This document shows, piece by piece, positions 53,423 to 61,669 of a stretch of 64,000 nucleotides of DNA. The stretch spans positions 1 to 64,000 of the forward strand of contig JANSYC010000013.1 of assembly GCA_024742605.1 (NCBI GenBank). The letters run 5' to 3'. This stretch comes from Alphaproteobacteria bacterium. GTDB lineage: Bacteria; Pseudomonadota; Alphaproteobacteria; Thalassobaculales; Thalassobaculaceae. Made by a program: the position numbers and the translations under genes. Position 1 is the stretch's first letter, and every line of letters begins with the position of its first letter. The notes under the pieces are model-generated. The model was not told the DNA's origin. It did not search any database and saw only the letters and a program-made list of their open reading frames with translations.

Positions 53423-54454
53423 ATGCAACGCATGGCCCACCGATTCCGCACCCTCTCAAAGAGCACTCTGGCGCTGATCGCTCTTGCGGTGCTGACCATG
53501 GTCGGCGCAGGCGTGGCACCCGCGCGGACGGCGGACACTGCCGTGTTCGTCGCCACGGGATTGGCGGAGGTGGCGCCTTTGGTGATTCCGGGAATCCTTC
53601 TGGCAGCCTGGGTGACGGCGAGCGGGGCGAGCGGTTGGATCTCGACCACATTGAACGGGCATATGGCCGGCGCCGTGTTGGTCGCCTCGGCCATCGGCGC
53701 GATCACGCCGGTATGCGGGGTGACGGTGCTGCCGCTGATGGCGGGGCTTCTGGCCGGCGGAGTGCCGCTGGCGCCGGTGATGGCCTTCTGGCTGTCCTCA
53801 CCGGTGACCGATCCGGCAATGTTCGCGACCACCGCGGCCACACTGGGACTGCCCTTCGCGATCGGCAAGACGGCGGCCGCCTTTGGTCTCGGACTGGCAG
53901 GCGGTGTCGCGACCGCGGCGCTGCGGGGACTGGCGTGGTGCCAGGCGCCGCTGCGCCAAGGCGGGCTTGCCGGTGACCTCGCGCGATGCTCACGAGGCGC
54001 GTGCGCGGGTCCGGCGCCATTCGAACCGGTGTTCTGGCGGACCACGGCCGGACGCAGCAGGTTCCAGGCCGAGGCATTGGCAACCTCGCGTCTGATCCTG
54101 ATCTGCCTGACGCCCGCCTTCGCGGCGGAATACCTCCTGCGCGCCACGCTGAGCCCAAACGCCCTGACCGGGTATCTGGGGCCCGAGGCGTGGTGGTCGA
54201 TCCCGGCGGCGGTGTTCGTTGGGGCGCCGGCCTATCTCGACGGCTACGCCGCGCTACCTCTGACCCGCACATTGATGGAGCATGGAATGTCGCCGGGCAC
54301 GGCCATGGCGTTCCTGGTCTCTGGCAGCGTTGTAAGCATCTGGGGCGCGTTGGCGATCGCACCCGTACTGCGCCTCAAGCCGTTCCTGCTTTACCTCGGG
54401 CTGGCCCTGGCCGGATCTCTTGCGAGCGGGTGGCTCTACGAATTGGCTGTGTAG
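53423..54454 (+). CDS. Permease of the DUF318/ArsP-type family
   Basis: 343 residues from ATG 53423 (MQRMAHRF), with GAGGA about 11 bases upstream; a frame reaching 53345 runs into the promoter region. Some eight hydrophobic segments are visible. The paired family motifs are ITPVCGVTVLPLMAGLLAGG with SSPVTDPAMF, and later FVGAPAYLDGYAALPL with MAFLVSGSVVSI. Relatives export organoarsenicals or other small solutes, or have no known substrate. It is divergent from the LysR regulator, which probably controls it. The stop overlaps cobB by 19 bp. Confidence 0.85.
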   Translation: MQRMAHRFRTLSKSTLALIALAVLTMVGAGVAPARTADTAVFVATGLAEVAPLVIPGILLAAWVTASGASGWISTTLNGHMAGAVLVASAIGAITPVCGVTVLPLMAGLLAGGVPLAPVMAFWLSSPVTDPAMFATTAATLGLPFAIGKTAAAFGLGLAGGVATAALRGLAWCQAPLRQGGLAGDLARCSRGACAGPAPFEPVFWRTTAGRSRFQAEALATSRLILICLTPAFAAEYLLRATLSPNALTGYLGPEAWWSIPAAVFVGAPAYLDGYAALPLTRTLMEHGMSPGTAMAFLVSGSVVSIWGALAIAPVLRLKPFLLYLGLALAGSLASGWLYELAV

Positions 54455-55212
54455 CTGCTCAGCGATCCCAGCACCGCGTCCACGAAAGCTGGGACCAGTT
54501 TGGTCGCCGGGCCGTGATAGGCCGTGTGGAATTCGGTCACACCGGCGGACGGCTCCAGATTCAGTTCGACCGTGTGGGCGCCGCCCACGAAGCGGGCTTC
54601 CTGCACGAAACCGGCGGCGGGATAGACGTTCCCGGAGGTGCCGATCGACACGAACAGGGCGCAACGGGCCAGGGCCGCGTAGATCCGGTCCATGCCCATC
54701 GGCATTTCGCCGAACCAGACCACGTCCGGTCGCCGGCTGCCGATGGTTCCGCAATTCGCGCAGATGCTGTCAGACGAGAGAGCCACGACGCAGTCCACGA
54801 CGTCATGACATTCGGCGCAGCGGCTTTTCAGCAGTTCGCCGTGCATGTGGATCAGCCCGCTCGACCCGCCGCGCTCGTGCAGATTGTCCACGTTCTGGGT
54901 GACCAGAAGAAAATCTGCGGGCCAATTCTGCTGCAGTTTGGCCAACGCATGGTGCGCTGAGTTCGGTTCAATCTCCGCCTCCAGCAGCCCGGCGCGGCGA
55001 TGATTGTAGAATTCCTGCACGCGGACCGGATTGGCGGCAAAGGCCTCTGGCGTCGCCACGTCCTCGATCCGGACTTTCGACCAGACCCCGTCCGCGTCCC
55101 GGAAGGTGTCGAGACCGGATTCCTTGGAGATCCCAGCCCCGGTCAGGATGACGATCGCACTCGTCTCGTCCAGATCGGGCAGGTCGAAGGACGGCATATC
55201 CCGATACAGCAT
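54436..55212 (-). CDS. cobB: NAD-dependent protein deacylase, sirtuin (CobB-like)
   Basis: 258 residues from the ATG at 55212, which has GAGGAC about seven bases upstream; the open frame extends far beyond but into unrelated sequence. IVILTGAGISKESGLDTFRD (NAD site), VTQNVDNLHERGGSS, the catalytic His in HMHGELLKS, the zinc cysteines RCAECHD and ICANCGTIGSRRPDVVWFGE, and GTSGNVYPAA are all in place. It removes acyl groups from lysines using NAD and also occurs as a regulator of acetyl-CoA synthetase. It diverges from the phosphatase gene at 55373. Confidence 0.94.
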   Translation of the reverse strand: MLYRDMPSFDLPDLDETSAIVILTGAGISKESGLDTFRDADGVWSKVRIEDVATPEAFAANPVRVQEFYNHRRAGLLEAEIEPNSAHHALAKLQQNWPADFLLVTQNVDNLHERGGSSGLIHMHGELLKSRCAECHDVVDCVVALSSDSICANCGTIGSRRPDVVWFGEMPMGMDRIYAALARCALFVSIGTSGNVYPAAGFVQEARFVGGAHTVELNLEPSAGVTEFHTAYHGPATKLVPAFVDAVLGSLSSYTANS

Positions 55213-55372
55213 CGACATGTCCTCGCTACGTGCGCTTACATATGCCCCGGCGCCGGTCGGCAGGCGGATCGACTTGAGCCGCAGCCCTACCCGGACGGTG
55301 TTGCGGTGCAACATAACGATAATGTGACGCTCATGCAAATGAGCTCCGAGCAGCACTGACGGAGTCCTTCCC

Positions 55373-55861
55373 GTGTACCGTATCCTTTTTGTCTGCACCG
55401 GAAACATCTGCCGCTCGCCGACGGCGGAGGGCATCCTGCGGGAGTTGTTGCGTGACGCCGGGCTCGGCGACACGATCGAACTCGATTCCGCCGGGCTGTA
55501 CGACGGCCATGTCGGCGCACCGCCCGACACCCTGGCGCGGCTGGCGGCGCGCGGCCGCGGCTATGTGCTGGACGATCTGCGGGCACGAGCGTTTCGCGAA
55601 ACGGATTTCCGCGATTTCGATCTGATCTTGGGGATGGACGGCGGTCATGTGCACGACATGAGACTGCGCGCACCTGACGGGGCGCGGGACCGTATCCGGC
55701 TGTTCAACGATATGTCCCGCGAGAACAAGGGCAGGGATGTGCCGGATCCGTACGGACGCAGTGCCGATGTCTACCAGTCGACCCTGGATATGATCGAGAT
55801 CGGCTGCCGAGATTTGAGGGACGCCCTGGTCGCCCAGCGGCCGGATCGGGGTCCTCTCTAG
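55373..55861 (+). CDS. Low-molecular-weight protein-tyrosine-phosphatase
   Basis: 162 residues from a GTG start. The catalytic loop ILFVCTGNICRSPTAEGILR (C-x5-R-S) is followed by LGMDGGHVHDM, and the general acid lies in DVPDPYGRSADVYQSTLDMI, so all functional parts are present. Such enzymes dephosphorylate phosphotyrosine proteins, often those regulating surface polysaccharide export. It stands alone between cobB and a DMT transporter. It is more typical than the paralogue at 35067. Confidence 0.93.
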   Translation: MYRILFVCTGNICRSPTAEGILRELLRDAGLGDTIELDSAGLYDGHVGAPPDTLARLAARGRGYVLDDLRARAFRETDFRDFDLILGMDGGHVHDMRLRAPDGARDRIRLFNDMSRENKGRDVPDPYGRSADVYQSTLDMIEIGCRDLRDALVAQRPDRGPL

Positions 55862-57922: not shown

Positions 57923-57940
57923 CCGATCACTTCGGATCGG
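57923..57940. terminator. Short palindrome at the panB / CMD convergent junction
   Basis: CCGATC and GATCGG pair around a 6-base centre just after the panB stop and reaching into the last codons of the convergent gene. It could serve as a bidirectional terminator, but without T-runs this is weak. Confidence 0.3.
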
Positions 57941-58373
57941 ACCAGCTTCGCAGAAATACCTCATCAACCGGCACCTTGTAGGCTTCCGCCAGGGCGTTGG
58001 TCTGGTTGAACATGCCGACCACCGCGAGCAACTCTCCGTATTCCCGGTCCGACATCCCCAGCTTGCGGGCGGCGGCGGTATGGCTGCGGGTGCAATAGTC
58101 GCAGCCGTTGGTGACGGAAACCGCCACCGCGATCATTTCCTTGAACTTCGGATCCAGCGCGCCCGGCGCCATCACTTCTTTCAGACCGTACCAGAGCCGG
58201 GACAGGGTCGGCGGGTGGCTCGCGAACACCTTCCAGGCGTTGGGTACGAAATCGATCTTCTTGGTGGTCATAATGTCGTCGAACACGGCCCGCACCTCAT
58301 CGGAGGCGTCCGCGTAGTCCACCATCGGCACGGTGGCGGGCTCGGGTGGGTTCGAGGCGGCGATCTGAGACAT
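57927..58373 (-). CDS. Carboxymuconolactone decarboxylase family / AhpD-like protein
   Basis: 148 residues from an ATG with GGAGG six bases upstream. The helical core LDPKFKEMIAVAVSVTNGCD then YCTRSHTAAARKLGMS carries the CxxC-x3-H redox motif of AhpD-like peroxidase-associated proteins. Members reduce alkylhydroperoxidases or act as small oxidoreductases. It is probably co-transcribed with the enoyl-CoA hydratase and Rieske genes upstream. The precise partner is unknown. Confidence 0.9.
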   Translation of the reverse strand: MSQIAASNPPEPATVPMVDYADASDEVRAVFDDIMTTKKIDFVPNAWKVFASHPPTLSRLWYGLKEVMAPGALDPKFKEMIAVAVSVTNGCDYCTRSHTAAARKLGMSDREYGELLAVVGMFNQTNALAEAYKVPVDEVFLRSWSDPK

Positions 58374-58432: not shown

Positions 58433-59224
58433 TCAGAGTTGGCCGGTGAAGGTCGGCGCACGCTTTTCAGCGAAGGCGGCCATGCCCTCCTGGGCGTCGG
58501 GTTCGGCGGCCGAGGTGGCGATGCCGGTGCCCTCGCGTTCCATCTGGGTCTCGAGCGGGGTCTCGTAGCTTTCCAGCAGCAGCCGCTTGGCGCGGCCGAA
58601 GGCGCGGGTCGGACCCTGGGCCAGGGCACGCGCCTGTTTCTCCGCCGTCTCGAACAGGGTGTCGTCGGGCAGCACCGAGGTGATCAGCCCCCAGTCCATC
58701 GCCTCCTGGGCGCTCAGGCGCCGGTTCGTCAGGGTCAGCTCCTGGGCGCGCCGCAGGCCGATCAGGCGCGGCAGAAGAAAGGTCGAGCCACCGTCCGGCG
58801 ACAGGCCCGCCGCCGTATAGGCCATGGTGAACCTGGCACTCTCCCCGCCATAGACCAGATCGCCGAGGAGGGCGAGCGACAGCCCGCCACCGGCCGCCGC
58901 CCCCTGGATCGCTGCCACCACTGGCGCGTCCATCCGGGCGAACTGCGCGCAGGCGGCATGCAGCAGGGCGGTGGTTTTCTTCAGCATCCGGCCCACATCC
59001 GGGCCCGCCTCTCGAAACACTTTCAAGTCGCCGCCGACGCAGAAATTCTTGCCCGCACCGCTCAGCAGCACCGCGCGCACTCCGCCGTCGGTCTCGCACC
59101 GCGCCGCCGCGTCGAGGAACTGGGCCGCCATCTCCTCGGTGATGCCGTTGCCCGCCTCCGGTCGGTTCAGCACCACGCGCGCCAGACCGTTCTCGACCGA
59201 AAACTTCACCAGATTCTGCGCCAT
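58433..59224 (-). CDS. Enoyl-CoA hydratase/isomerase family protein
   Basis: 263 residues from an ATG with GGAG six bases upstream. Crotonase-fold features: ARVVLNRPEAGNGITEEMAA, VLLSGAGKNFCVGGDLKVFR (oxyanion hole) and AIQGAAAGGGLSLALLGDLV, then YTAAGLSPDGGSTFLLPRLI with Asp rather than Glu around the second catalytic position. It hydrates or isomerises an acyl-CoA, perhaps in fatty- or aromatic-acid breakdown. The local context does not fix the substrate. Confidence 0.92.
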   Translation of the reverse strand: MAQNLVKFSVENGLARVVLNRPEAGNGITEEMAAQFLDAAARCETDGGVRAVLLSGAGKNFCVGGDLKVFREAGPDVGRMLKKTTALLHAACAQFARMDAPVVAAIQGAAAGGGLSLALLGDLVYGGESARFTMAYTAAGLSPDGGSTFLLPRLIGLRRAQELTLTNRRLSAQEAMDWGLITSVLPDDTLFETAEKQARALAQGPTRAFGRAKRLLLESYETPLETQMEREGTGIATSAAEPDAQEGMAAFAEKRAPTFTGQL

Positions 59225-59323: not shown

Positions 59324-60952
59324 TTACTCGCCCTCAACCGTCTTGAGCGCCTGATAGGCTGTCCTGCGGGTGAGCTTGCGGGTGAACGGCTCGTTCAGGA
59401 ACCGGTTCAGCGCCGCGACCAGGGCCGGCACCCAGGGGGCCTCTGGACGCAGCAGCACCTCTTCCCGCACCGCATAGGTCATCTTCACCAGGTGCGCCGA
59501 GACGATGTACTCGGTGTTGCCGTGATCGACGATATCGCGGGCGGTGACCTCCAGAAACCCGATCTGGTCGGCCACCCGCCAGGGGGCGGTCTCCCGCGCC
59601 GGGTCGACGAACCCGCCGCTGCGTCCCAGGAAACAGGCGATCTGCAGCAGCACGTCCGGCCACAGGTCCGGATGGCGTTCGGCAATCCGGCGGCCGGCAT
59701 TGGCGAAGGTGATCGCATGGCTGAAGTCGAGTCGGTTGACGTTCTGGCTGATCGGCTGATCCGGCCGGGTCGCATAGGTCGGATCGGCCCGCACCAGCTG
59801 CCAGGCCGCCGCCTCCAGCATCGCATCATAGAGTGCGGAAATGTTCCCGCTGGCGGCCAGCACCCGGTCGAGCGCCTTGGTCACCGACACCCGGCAGAAA
59901 TCGGCGGGCTTGGCGCGGGCGCTGCCGGTTCCGGTCCAGGCCTTGCGAGCCGGGTGATACCCCTTGAATTCCGGGATCAGATCCTCCCGGCGGGCGGTGA
60001 CCAGTGCCCGCAGACAGGCCAGCGCGTAGGGCAGTTCAGCCGCTGTTCCCAACCGCTGCACCGCCTCCCGACTCTTCTCCACATAGATCGCGGAATGTCC
60101 GAAATCCTGATAATGCGCCAGCGCCGCACGGGCCAGCCCCCGATCGATCCTGTCCCAGCCACCGATCCGCAGCCCGTCCCGCAGCAGTTTGGTCGCCGTG
60201 TCCTCGTCCTCGGCTTCAACCGCCGCCACGAAGGCGTCTTCCGCCCAAGGCAGCATGCCCTCGGCGAAGGGGAAGCTCGGCATCCGCAGGCTGTCCCAGC
60301 ACAGATGGCCGAGAATTTCCGATATGGCCGCGACCCGGTCCGGGTCGTTCTCGGCGCGCTCGTAGACCGCCAGCCAGTCCGGCGCCGCCGCCAGCGCATG
60401 GGTCATGCCCCATTCGAACTTATCGTGGGTCCAGTCGATCGCCGCCCGTACGGCGTCCCTCGGATCCCCGCCAGCCTGCTGAATTCGGGCGACATCGCGG
60501 GCAATCCGGTCGTAGTCGTAACGCTTGAATGAGGCTTTCAGCGAGGCGAGGGCTCTCTCGATACGAACCTCGGGCGGCGGATCGGTCAGATCGAGTTGGA
60601 TCATGCCCTTGACCACCCGGATCGGATAGGTCCGGACCGGATCTCCACCGCCGGCTTCCGCGCCGGTTTCCAGGTCAAATTTCCAGTTGTGCCAGTTGCA
60701 GGTCAATGTGCAGACGGTGCCACCCTCGGTGAAGGTGCCCTCGGACAGAGGGTATCCCTCATGGGGACAGCGGTTCGCGATCGCGCGCGGGCCCCGGGGG
60801 GTCGCAAACAGGGCGATCTGCTTGCCGCCGCGTTTGATCAGCACCCTCCCCTTGGCGTCGAGTTCGGAGGCCTCCAGCGCCTCGACCCACATTCCGACCT
60901 CATCGGCGGCGTCGGCTCTTGAGGCGGGCGGCTCTGAAACGGTTACGGGCAT
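59324..60952 (-). CDS. Rieske [2Fe-2S] protein with large C-terminal helical domain
   Basis: 542 residues from an ATG with AGGAGAC just upstream. Residues about 20-120 are a Rieske domain: RCPHEGYPLSEG (C62, H64) and CTLTCNWHNWKFDLETG (C85, H88) bind the cluster. The remaining about 420 residues are predicted helical, with repeated EDP/ALA-rich segments and no motif of the usual Rieske oxygenase catalytic domain (no obvious H-x4-H plus Asp iron site). It therefore looks like an electron-transfer domain fused to a novel or poorly described partner. No signal peptide. Confidence 0.88.
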   Translation of the reverse strand: MPVTVSEPPASRADAADEVGMWVEALEASELDAKGRVLIKRGGKQIALFATPRGPRAIANRCPHEGYPLSEGTFTEGGTVCTLTCNWHNWKFDLETGAEAGGGDPVRTYPIRVVKGMIQLDLTDPPPEVRIERALASLKASFKRYDYDRIARDVARIQQAGGDPRDAVRAAIDWTHDKFEWGMTHALAAAPDWLAVYERAENDPDRVAAISEILGHLCWDSLRMPSFPFAEGMLPWAEDAFVAAVEAEDEDTATKLLRDGLRIGGWDRIDRGLARAALAHYQDFGHSAIYVEKSREAVQRLGTAAELPYALACLRALVTARREDLIPEFKGYHPARKAWTGTGSARAKPADFCRVSVTKALDRVLAASGNISALYDAMLEAAAWQLVRADPTYATRPDQPISQNVNRLDFSHAITFANAGRRIAERHPDLWPDVLLQIACFLGRSGGFVDPARETAPWRVADQIGFLEVTARDIVDHGNTEYIVSAHLVKMTYAVREEVLLRPEAPWVPALVAALNRFLNEPFTRKLTRRTAYQALKTVEGE

Positions 60953-60996
60953 GACCTGTCTCCTCCATATCGTTGGATGGAGTATTCGCCGTTCGG

Positions 60997-61020
60997 AAAA
61001 TTAAAACAAGAAAAATCTTG
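60997..61020 (-). terminator. Candidate intrinsic terminator of the small membrane-protein gene
   Basis: On the minus strand CAAGA and TCTTG pair around a T4 loop, followed by TTTTAATTTT. It lies just after the stop at 61026. The stem is only five pairs, so strength is uncertain, but the T-rich tail is the best in the window. Confidence 0.5.
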
Positions 61021-61025
61021 CTTAA

Positions 61026-61343
61026 TTAATCCCCGAAAATCCGATCCGTTCGTTCCCGCCGACGGCCCAGCAGCAGCAGGATCGCTCCGAGCCCACCGAA
61101 TACCGCGAAGGCCGGCCACAACAGAATGGTGGTGATCACGGGATGCCAAAGGATCGGATGGACGTAGCGGGACACCGCGGCCTCGGCCAGTTGCAGCGAG
61201 CCCGAATGCAGGCTGTGCCACAGAAAGCCGAGCACGATCGGCTCGAACCGGCCTTCAGTGGCGAAGTGGATCAGATCACGTCCGAGAAGGATGAGGGCGA
61301 TCGAGAGGAAGGTCCAACCGATCGCACGAAGTACAAGACGCAT
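61026..61343 (-). CDS. Small hypothetical membrane protein
   Basis: 105 residues from ATG 61343 (ATG 61370 would add nine). Two clear transmembrane segments, about residues 8-25 (GWTFLSIALILLGRDL) and 70-92 (ITTILLWPAFAVFGGLGAIL), flank a loop with WHSLHSGSLQLAEA. A basic C-terminal tail follows. No family recognised. It is transcribed toward the Rieske gene but separated by the terminator at 60997-61020. Confidence 0.7.
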   Translation of the reverse strand: MRLVLRAIGWTFLSIALILLGRDLIHFATEGRFEPIVLGFLWHSLHSGSLQLAEAAVSRYVHPILWHPVITTILLWPAFAVFGGLGAILLLLGRRRERTDRIFGD

Positions 61344-61579
61344 GGGAGTATCTTCAGATTTGAAGACCATAGCTCGGGTCCGCCACGGAAAATGTCTCCC
61401 CGCGACCCCGCTCTCTCACCTCCGTTTAACCATGAAAACCGGCCGGAGAAAACCCATGCGACCGGTCAGTCGAACACGCCTGCCGTCCGACCGGATCCCC
61501 GGCCACGCACATTCCTGAGAAAATACGCGTCCACCGCGTTGCATGTTGCCGCCGCGTCGACTATTTTCCCGCTCCTTAC

Positions 61580-61669
61580 GGAGGGGTGGCCGAGTGGTTG
61601 AAGGCGCACGCCTGGAAAGTGTGTAGGGGTGAAAGCCTCTCGCGGGTTCGAATCCCGCTCCCTCCGCCA
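61580..61669 (+). tRNA. tRNA-Ser (anticodon GGA)
   Basis: Acceptor GGAGGGG pairs with TCCCTCC (one G-U). The D arm GGCCGAGTGGTTGAAGGC, the anticodon loop CTGGAAA (anticodon GGA), a long variable arm (GTAGGGGTGAAAGCCTCTC, as in class II tRNAs) and the T arm CGGGTTCGAATCCCG are complete, and CCA is encoded. It borders an unusual low-GC non-coding tract. Confidence 0.96.

What the first reader, a model, noticed from the sequence alone, without database searches (positions are those of the whole stretch)
59324..60952. Rieske cluster domain joined to about 420 residues of unrecognised helical protein
Ligands C62, H64, C85 and H88 are clear, but the rest lacks the mononuclear iron motif of Rieske oxygenases. 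The downstream genes (enoyl-CoA hydratase, AhpD-like) hint at a catabolic role.
Basis: partly seen in the sequence, partly recalled or inferred. Interest (0 to 1): 0.5.

Follow-up and report, generated by a model that had tools for sequence, protein, structure and literature searches.

The report
Rieske-fused BTG13-fold oxygenase in redox regulon
A bacterial protein joins an electron-carrying iron-sulphur (Rieske) domain to a helical domain with the fold of fungal quinone-cleaving iron oxygenases, and its gene seems to be controlled together with stress genes by an iron-sulphur sensing regulator, so it probably helps to destroy redox-active aromatic poisons.

Summary
In detail: window 59324-60952(-) encodes 542 residues with an N-terminal Rieske domain (C62, H64, C85, H88 in 79 of 79 aligned proteins) and about 417 helical residues that no Pfam or NCBIfam model recognises. 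By fold that part is recognisable: modelled alone (pLDDT 95.3) it matches BTG13, a fungal questin-oxidase-like non-heme iron dioxygenase, at Z 20.7 over 333 residues, and PaD, a hydroquinone dioxygenase, at 18.5; the next unrelated chain has Z 7.0. The domain has exactly four invariant His and one invariant Lys (H185, H286, H412, H487, K490), in the order and similar spacing of BTG13 H58, H158, H374, K377 (third His not read). The catabolic neighbours are not conserved. Conserved instead is a SufR-like regulator, divergent from the gene in 44 of 80 loci, and a palindrome (CAAG-N6-CTTG in the window, 61007-61020). In five held-out genomes 19 of 21 sites lie at a superoxide dismutase, efflux pump, VOC, epimerase-like, regulator or Rieske-oxygenase gene. 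Best reading: a Rieske-coupled BTG13-type oxygenase of a SoxR-like redox-stress regulon. Substrate and reaction are inferred.

The parts
59324..60952 (-). CDS, 542 aa: Rieske domain fused to a BTG13-fold domain
60584..60889 (-). Rieske [2Fe-2S] domain (residues 22-123), ligands C62, H64, C85, H88
   Evidence: VIA-align to 2qpz Z 17.0, rmsd 1.7, 101 aligned
59327..60577 (-). BTG13-fold domain, presumed catalytic (residues 126-542)
   Evidence: model pLDDT 95.3, pTM 0.93; BTG13 7y3x Z 20.7, PaD 8z4q Z 18.5, next unrelated Z 7.0
60398..60400 (-). H185, predicted Fe ligand, counterpart of BTG13 H58
   Evidence: 79 of 79; BTG13 H58 aligned to the corresponding His of a bacterial PF14027 protein
60095..60097 (-). 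H286, predicted Fe ligand, counterpart of BTG13 H158
   Evidence: 79 of 79; BTG13 numbering counted from the alignments; pairing of H286 rather than H280 is my choice
59708..59719 (-). H412-x-x-T415, predicted Fe ligand and pocket Thr; counterpart of PaD H317-x-x-T320
   Evidence: 79 of 79 for both residues; hhalign pairs LDFSHAITFANA with IVFTHAITAVAA; PaD numbering counted
59483..59494 (-). H487-x-x-K490, predicted Fe ligands; counterpart of BTG13 H374-x-x-K377
   Evidence: 79 of 79; BTG13 numbering counted from the alignment; hhalign pairs HLVK with HVIK
61007..61020 (.). CAAG-N6-CTTG palindrome, predicted operator of the SufR-like regulator, about 55 bp before the ATG
   Evidence: the only copy in the 64-kb window
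60960..60966 (-). Shine-Dalgarno-like GGAGGAG
   Evidence: sequence
61026..61370 (-). upstream 114-aa ORF, hydrophobic by eye; neighbour, homologues in 9 of 80 loci
   Evidence: no Pfam family over its cut-off and no NCBIfam family
58433..59224 (-). downstream enoyl-CoA hydratase, neighbour judged not part of the system
57927..58373 (-). downstream AhpD/CMD-like protein, neighbour judged not part of the system

Best explanation
The protein is a Rieske-coupled, non-heme iron oxygenase whose catalytic domain has the all-helical BTG13/questin-oxidase-like fold, not the fold of classical Rieske oxygenases. Shown by computation: domain architecture, fold match, and invariance of four His and one Lys at sites corresponding to the BTG13 metal site. 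Inferred: H185, H286, H412, H487 and K490 (possibly carboxylated, as recalled for BTG13) hold one iron; the Rieske cluster hands electrons from a cellular reductase to this iron or to a bound quinone; with O2 the enzyme hydroxylates or cleaves a (hydro)quinone-like or other redox-active aromatic compound. The gene belongs to a small regulon of a SufR-like regulator (shown: shared palindrome and linkage; binding and direction of control inferred) together with superoxide dismutase, an MFS efflux pump, VOC proteins and an NAD-dependent epimerase-like protein. When redox-cycling compounds damage the regulator's presumed Fe-S cluster, repression is lifted and the poison is exported and degraded: a functional analogue of the SoxR circuit.
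For: Fold: (BTG13 and PaD hold the top five rows for the domain, Z 18.2-20.7 against 7.0 for the next). Catalytic residues. Fusion: no free-standing copy of the domain among the hits whose DNA was held. Regulator: 49 of 80 loci have it, 44 divergent within 600 bp; its five Cys are in 63-65 of 65 rows, gaps otherwise. Operator: AAAG-N6-CTTT in 28 of 44 intergenic regions against 0.15 expected (best of all 4-mer dyads tried); CAAG-N6-CTTG before the gene in 10 of 17 family rows and before the regulator in 14 of 15 family genomes. Regulon: 19 of 21 sites in five held-out genomes, 13 of 15 leaving out the regulator's and this gene's own sites; genomes with the regulator hold 69 sites against 29 reversed-pattern controls, genomes without it 49 against 47. 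SOD, VOC, MFS and epimerase-like identities.
Against: Sequence homology to BTG13 or PF14027 is weak: hhalign probability 6.4% (E 0.0058), PF14027 matched by 0 of 79 domain parts at E up to 0.05, Foldseek E only 0.048 (probability 0.99, TM 0.45, with an unrelated chain of probability 0.11 ranked above it), and no PDB hit for the domain profile. No coordinates could be read, so the geometry of the metal site and its distance to the Rieske cluster were not measured. Ligand identity in BTG13 is recalled, not read. No substrate, reductase or activity is shown. 31 of 80 loci lack a linked regulator; 23 of 80 have neither it nor an exact dyad, and 20 of the 49 with it lack both exact dyads within 400 bp. 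Family rows L010-L013, L015, L016 and L009 (3' part of a split gene) lack the dyad before this gene. In G009 and G016 the reversed control exceeds the pattern. 14 of 14 further sites in regulator-bearing genomes lay next to none of the reference genes, so the bare palindrome also occurs by chance. In the window's own genome no site was found before a superoxide dismutase.
Confidence: 0.6

Rival explanations
1. The enzyme is a biosynthetic tailoring oxygenase: it modifies an endogenous redox-active metabolite, and the co-regulated pump exports the product.
For: BTG13 and AflY are fungal enzymes (names) of biosynthetic pathways (recalled). In antibiotic producers SoxR controls transporters and proteins like antibiotic-tailoring enzymes (abstract of PMC4146615). 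An MFS gene lies within 0.7 kb of this gene in 5 of 80 loci.
Against: No biosynthetic gene cluster stood out among the recurrent neighbours (only some clusters were identified by family search); sites lie before superoxide dismutase in five genomes (L218, L230, L232, L244, L213).
Confidence: 0.18
2. The protein is a sensor or a reductase (quinone, NO or superoxide reducing) rather than an oxygenase: the Rieske domain feeds electrons to the helical-domain iron, which reduces an oxidant.
For: The regulon looks like a stress regulon; the NirD model gives the best NCBIfam score for the Rieske part.
Against: The fold and the invariant residues match known dioxygenases; the NirD score is below its cut-off (50.9 against 74.65).
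Confidence: 0.15
3. A catabolic ring-hydroxylating system together with the downstream enoyl-CoA hydratase and AhpD-like genes.
For: In the window the four genes from 61370 down to 57927 run the same way with gaps of about 60-100 bp.
Against: The full arrangement is found only in the same-genus contig (1 of 80 loci).
Confidence: 0.05

Closest known systems
BTG13, questin oxidase of Cercospora sp. JNU001 (PDB 7y3w, 7y3x, 7y3y)
   Same: Fold (Z 20.7, 333 residues, rmsd 4.4); four His and one Lys in the same order with similar spacing (185, 286, 412, 487, 490 against 58, 158, not read, 374, 377).
   Different: 10-11% identity, no PF14027 match for our protein, and no Rieske domain was seen in the BTG13 chain (444 residues); fungal and biosynthetic (recalled).
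PaD, hydroquinone dioxygenase (PDB 8z4q, 8z4r)
   Same: Fold (Z 18.5, 327 residues); H166, H317-x-x-T320 and H394-x-x-K397, counted from the alignment, fit the same motif.
   Different: No Rieske domain seen in the aligned chain (473 residues); 8-12% identity.
Bacterial PF14027 proteins (L111-L115, L118)
   Same: Four invariant His and one invariant Lys in the five of A3 and in the pair L118/L111.
   Different: About 350-450 residues as open frames, sequence-dissimilar; found in other genomes; three of the five in A3 (L111-L113) pass the Pfam cut-off, L114 and L115 do not.
Classical Rieske non-heme iron oxygenases (e.g. carbazole 1,9a-dioxygenase, dicamba monooxygenase)
   Same: N-terminal Rieske domain which, by inference, feeds an iron site in the same polypeptide.
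   Different: The catalytic domain fold differs; in the rows the oxygenases align only within residues 16-125.
SoxR regulon of Streptomyces coelicolor (PMC4146615, abstract read)
   Same: [quoted passage not shown] SoxR is an Fe-S sensor (recalled).
   Different: The regulator here is SufR-like (winged helix, five conserved Cys) with another operator; superoxide dismutase is included.

Membership tests
Rieske [2Fe-2S] domain (PF00355) | CxH...CxxH ligands and score over the gathering cut-off | tested here: met
   52.2 bits against 20.3; ligands 79 of 79
Rieske non-heme iron ring-hydroxylating oxygenase, alpha subunit | beta-sheet-based catalytic domain with a 2-His-1-carboxylate iron site (recalled definition) | tested here: not met
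   Residues 127-541 helical; domain alone matches BTG13; no motif
BTG13/PaD structural family (questin-oxidase-like fold) | fold | tested here: met
   Z 20.7 and 18.5 with the next unrelated chain at 7.0
BTG13/PaD structural family (questin-oxidase-like fold) | four His and one Lys at the metal site (recalled definition) | tested here: inconclusive
   Five invariant residues in matching order and spacing; third BTG13 His not read, geometry not measured
Questin_oxidase, PF14027 | score over the Pfam cut-off | tested here: not met
   Not matched by P0001 nor by any of 79 domain parts at E up to 0.05; none in the genome
Questin_oxidase, PF14027 | dioxygenase activity on (hydro)quinones | not testable with these tools
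   Needs biochemistry
SufR (TIGR02702) for the associated regulator | score over the curated cut-off | tested here: not met
   120.3 bits for L051's protein against 178.8; no family genome over the cut-off, best 126.4: hence 'SufR-like'
SufR (TIGR02702) for the associated regulator | conserved Cys ligands in the C-terminal part | tested here: met
   Five Cys in 63-65 of 65 rows, gaps otherwise; cluster binding not tested

The most novel reading that the evidence does not exclude
A second class of Rieske oxygenase: electrons from a Rieske cluster drive a four-His plus (carboxylated) Lys iron site in a BTG13-type helical domain, an arrangement that arose independently of the classical Rieske oxygenases, as the effector of a SoxR-like redox-stress regulon run by a SufR-like sensor in Alphaproteobacteria.
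Probability: 0.45. Interest if true: 0.75.

Novelty: new variant of a known kind. Interest (0 to 1): 0.62.

Why it matters
In classical Rieske oxygenases the Rieske domain is tied to one catalytic fold (recalled). A natural single-chain fusion of a Rieske cluster with the unrelated BTG13-type iron site would make it possible to ask how Rieske electron supply changes the chemistry of that site (dioxygenase to monooxygenase, or quinone reduced in place). The regulon gives a concrete physiological role and testable inducers, and names a candidate SoxR-like circuit built on another regulator.

Tried and rejected
Catabolic operon idea: rejected, neighbours not conserved. Mononuclear-iron motif of classical Rieske oxygenases: not found. 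Sequence routes to the fold: Pfam, NCBIfam, PDB profile searches and hhalign gave nothing decisive; Foldseek with the full model listed only Rieske proteins in the 50 rows shown. First operator guess (TTTNNAAAG-N6-CTTTNNAAA, 2 mismatches) in the window's own genome: one place, counted on both strands, fewer than the control's two per strand; the CAAG-N6-CTTG form was then found. Stand-alone copies of the domain: none seen; of 62 hmmsearch ORF rows (many genes appear twice) 56 show the Rieske motif by a regular expression; the 6 misses are one gene with a longer spacer (L008/L129; motif seen), the 3' part of a split gene (L009) and one fragment (L017/L024/L135). Eight class genomes (G156, G131, G658, G573, G644, G586, G479, G612) were not checked for the motif; their open frames are 196-760 aa. 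Literature: no paper held both 'questin oxidase' and 'Rieske' (0 papers); ten papers hold 'Rieske' and 'SufR' (titles and starts of abstracts seen, none of them by these about such a protein); the primary BTG13 paper was not found, only the title of a 2024 ACS Catalysis paper in two reference lists (passages). Coordinates of the models are not available, so distances were not measured. A Z 6-7 match of residues 234-344 to the C-terminal part of AAA ATPases is middling and was not followed.

Rows dropped: alignment A2 left out L031 and L059 of the 80 loci (78 of 80 used, plus the window protein). The 18 operator sites were chosen by eye for A+T-rich sequence (one of them, L235, from a genome without the regulator); 14 further listed sites in regulator-bearing genomes were then fetched and none matched. 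Sites listed for genomes without the regulator were otherwise not examined, and its list was cut off.

Full report
1. What is there. Window 59324-60952, minus strand, is one open reading frame of 542 codons beginning with ATG behind a GGAGGAG. Residues 22-98 match the Rieske domain (PF00355, 52.2 bits, cut-off 20.3); nothing else in Pfam or NCBIfam matches the rest. The profile search of genome contigs gave 312 tblastn-confirmed relatives, of which 80 loci are held; by record title most are Alphaproteobacteria or families of it, three are labelled otherwise (L072 Arenicellales, L077 SAR324, L100 Gammaproteobacteria) and three only 'Proteobacteria' or 'bacterium'. In the alignment A2 (window protein plus 78 of those 80) C62, H64, C85 and H88 are present in 79 of 79. 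The same-genus orthologue is 89% identical with dN 0.061 and dS 0.513, so the gene is under purifying selection.

2. Distribution. With the C-terminal part alone as a profile (A4), 17 of 36 genomes of the family have a match (14 of 20 good ones; one of the 17 is a fragment and one a split gene), 39 of 385 genomes of the class (one a weak partial match, G612, and one interrupted by a stop, G479), and 3 of 299 of the phylum sample, all three of the window's class. Among hits whose DNA was held, every intact gene carries the Rieske motif (and, for one with a long spacer); eight class genomes were not checked. The fusion is therefore the normal state of this family, not an accident of the window.

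3. Fold. AlphaFold2 on A2 gave mean pLDDT 92.5 and pTM 0.89; residues 127-541 are helical. VIA-align with the full model put BTG13 first (7y3y Z 20.3, 332 aligned, rmsd 4.4), with 8yxs (AflY, 19.7) and PaD 8z4q (18.3) next, above the Rieske ferredoxins (17.0 and below, residues 19-123). The domain alone (pLDDT 95.3, pTM 0.93) gave 7y3x Z 20.7 (333 aligned, rmsd 4.4), 7y3w 20.6, 7y3y 19.7, 8z4q 18.5, 8z4r 18.2, and then 7.0 for the first unrelated chain; 8yxs did not appear in that list. Foldseek listed PaD at rank 2 with E 0.048 and probability 0.99. Sequence evidence alone is weak: hhalign against five bacterial PF14027-type proteins has probability 6.4% and E 0.0058, though its 94 aligned columns are those that hold two of the catalytic motifs.

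4. The presumed metal site. In A4 the domain has exactly four invariant His and one invariant Lys: domain positions 60, 161, 287, 362 and 365, that is H185, H286, H412, H487 and K490. The five bacterial proteins of A3 also have exactly four invariant His and one invariant Lys: 48, 138, 266, 334 and 337, and so does the pair L118/L111: 30, 122, 235, 312 and 315. PDB alignments with such proteins place BTG13 H58 at the first, H158 at the second and H374-x-x-K377 at the last two; PaD shows H166, H317-x-x-T320 and H394-x-x-K397; these numbers I counted from the printed alignments. The third BTG13 His was not read; T299, mutated in 7y3y, would stand where T415 does. I recall, but could not read, that BTG13 binds iron by four His and carboxylated Lys377. 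On this basis the four His and K490 are the predicted iron ligands. The pairing of H286 with BTG13 H158 (rather than H280, 78 of 79) is my choice, from the shared HxxI pattern.

5. Neighbours. The enoyl-CoA hydratase and AhpD-like genes are not conserved neighbours. Automatic gene calls on the 80 loci gave one strong recurrent neighbour: a SufR-like regulator (TIGR02702 120.3 bits, below the cut-off of 178.8), found by tblastn in 49 of 80 loci, divergent and within 600 bp in 44, further away in 3 and on the same strand in 2; of the 31 without it, 5 have under 700 bp of upstream DNA. Its Cys residues are conserved. In the window's own genome it lies elsewhere (C103) between a photolyase-like gene and an MFS gene (photolyase recognised by recall). 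In the family's 36 genomes the two genes occur together in 13, this gene alone in 4 (one a fragment), the regulator alone in 2, neither in 17 (Fisher p 1e-4; genome size and completeness confound this). The TIGR02702 search also rang in 12 of 14 control genomes, over the cut-off in 1; the family's 15 hits counted here all have 106-126 bits, against about 21-23 bits for its weak second matches.

6. Operator and regulon. AAAG-N6-CTTT occurs in 28 of 44 intergenic regions between regulator and Rieske gene, against 0.15 expected from block shuffles (the strongest of all 4-mer dyads with gaps 0-14), and extends to TTTMTAAAG-N6-CTTTANAAA. In the family the form is CAAG-N6-CTTG: before the regulator in 14 of 15 genomes, and before this gene in 10 of 17 rows (two rows being the parts of the split gene in G010), including the window at 61007-61020, its only copy in 64 kb. 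Either dyad lies within 400 bp upstream in 37 of 80 loci against 0.7 expected from shuffles. With WW flanks the window's genome has 4 sites (control 1): before this gene, 17 bp before the MFS start (position), 15 bp before a VOC gene, and one inside the ORF of a DegQ-like protein (recalled). Over the family, regulator-bearing genomes hold 69 sites against 29 reversed-pattern controls (15 genomes) and the others 49 against 47 (21 genomes). Eighteen sites chosen by eye gave 17 next to SOD, VOC (two types), MFS or epimerase-like genes; since five of the reference proteins came from these sites, this is not an independent test. The 21 sites of five genomes that gave no SOD, VOC, MFS or epimerase reference (G026-G030) are such a test: 19 have the start of a homologue of one of the eight reference proteins within 116 bp (regulator 2, this gene 4, SOD 2, VOC 7, epimerase-like 3, MFS 1); leaving out the regulator's and this gene's own sites, part of which I had seen before, 13 of 15. 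Fourteen further listed sites in regulator-bearing genomes matched none.

7. Mechanism. The pieces fit a SoxR-like circuit: a regulator with conserved Cys, presumed to hold an Fe-S cluster that redox-cycling compounds would harm, controls superoxide dismutase, an efflux pump, VOC proteins, an epimerase-like protein and this oxygenase. The S. [quoted passage not shown] BTG13 and PaD act on anthraquinone or hydroquinone substrates (PDB titles, a paper title, otherwise recalled), which are of the right chemical kind. That this enzyme acts on such compounds, and what the Rieske cluster does, are inferences.

8. Verdict. The finding is real and more interesting than stated: a known domain and a known fold in a combination for which I found no description (searches, in a library that lacks most subscription papers), with a well-supported predicted regulon. 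I file it as a structural relative of BTG13, not as a PF14027 member, and as a Rieske-containing protein, probably an oxygenase, that is not a classical Rieske oxygenase.

Noticed in passing
L020:1519-3381 (G000:C59, the window's own genome): Another unusual Rieske fusion: N-terminal Rieske domain followed by thiamine-pyrophosphate enzyme domains (TPP_enzyme N, M and C; the locus ends inside the gene).
   Followed up: partly
G010:C145:36145-40330 (L019, L009): In one family genome the Rieske-oxygenase gene is split by about 2.5 kb; in G013 only a fragment was found (L017). Described only.
   Followed up: no
window 54436-55861: A Sir2-like and a low-molecular-weight phosphatase-like gene (names recalled) lie within 7 kb of the Rieske gene in the window; homologues lie near it in 12 and 14 of 80 loci, a wider conserved neighbourhood without explanation.
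   Followed up: no
L166:1-3603 (G000:C103): The unlinked SufR-like regulator sits between a photolyase/cryptochrome-like gene and an MFS pump whose start carries the palindrome.
   Followed up: partly
window 61580-61669: tRNA-Ser (GGA), about 200 bp upstream of the 114-aa ORF.
   Followed up: no
P0001 residues 234-344: Middling structural match (Z 6-7) to the C-terminal part of MgsA-type AAA ATPases.
   Followed up: no
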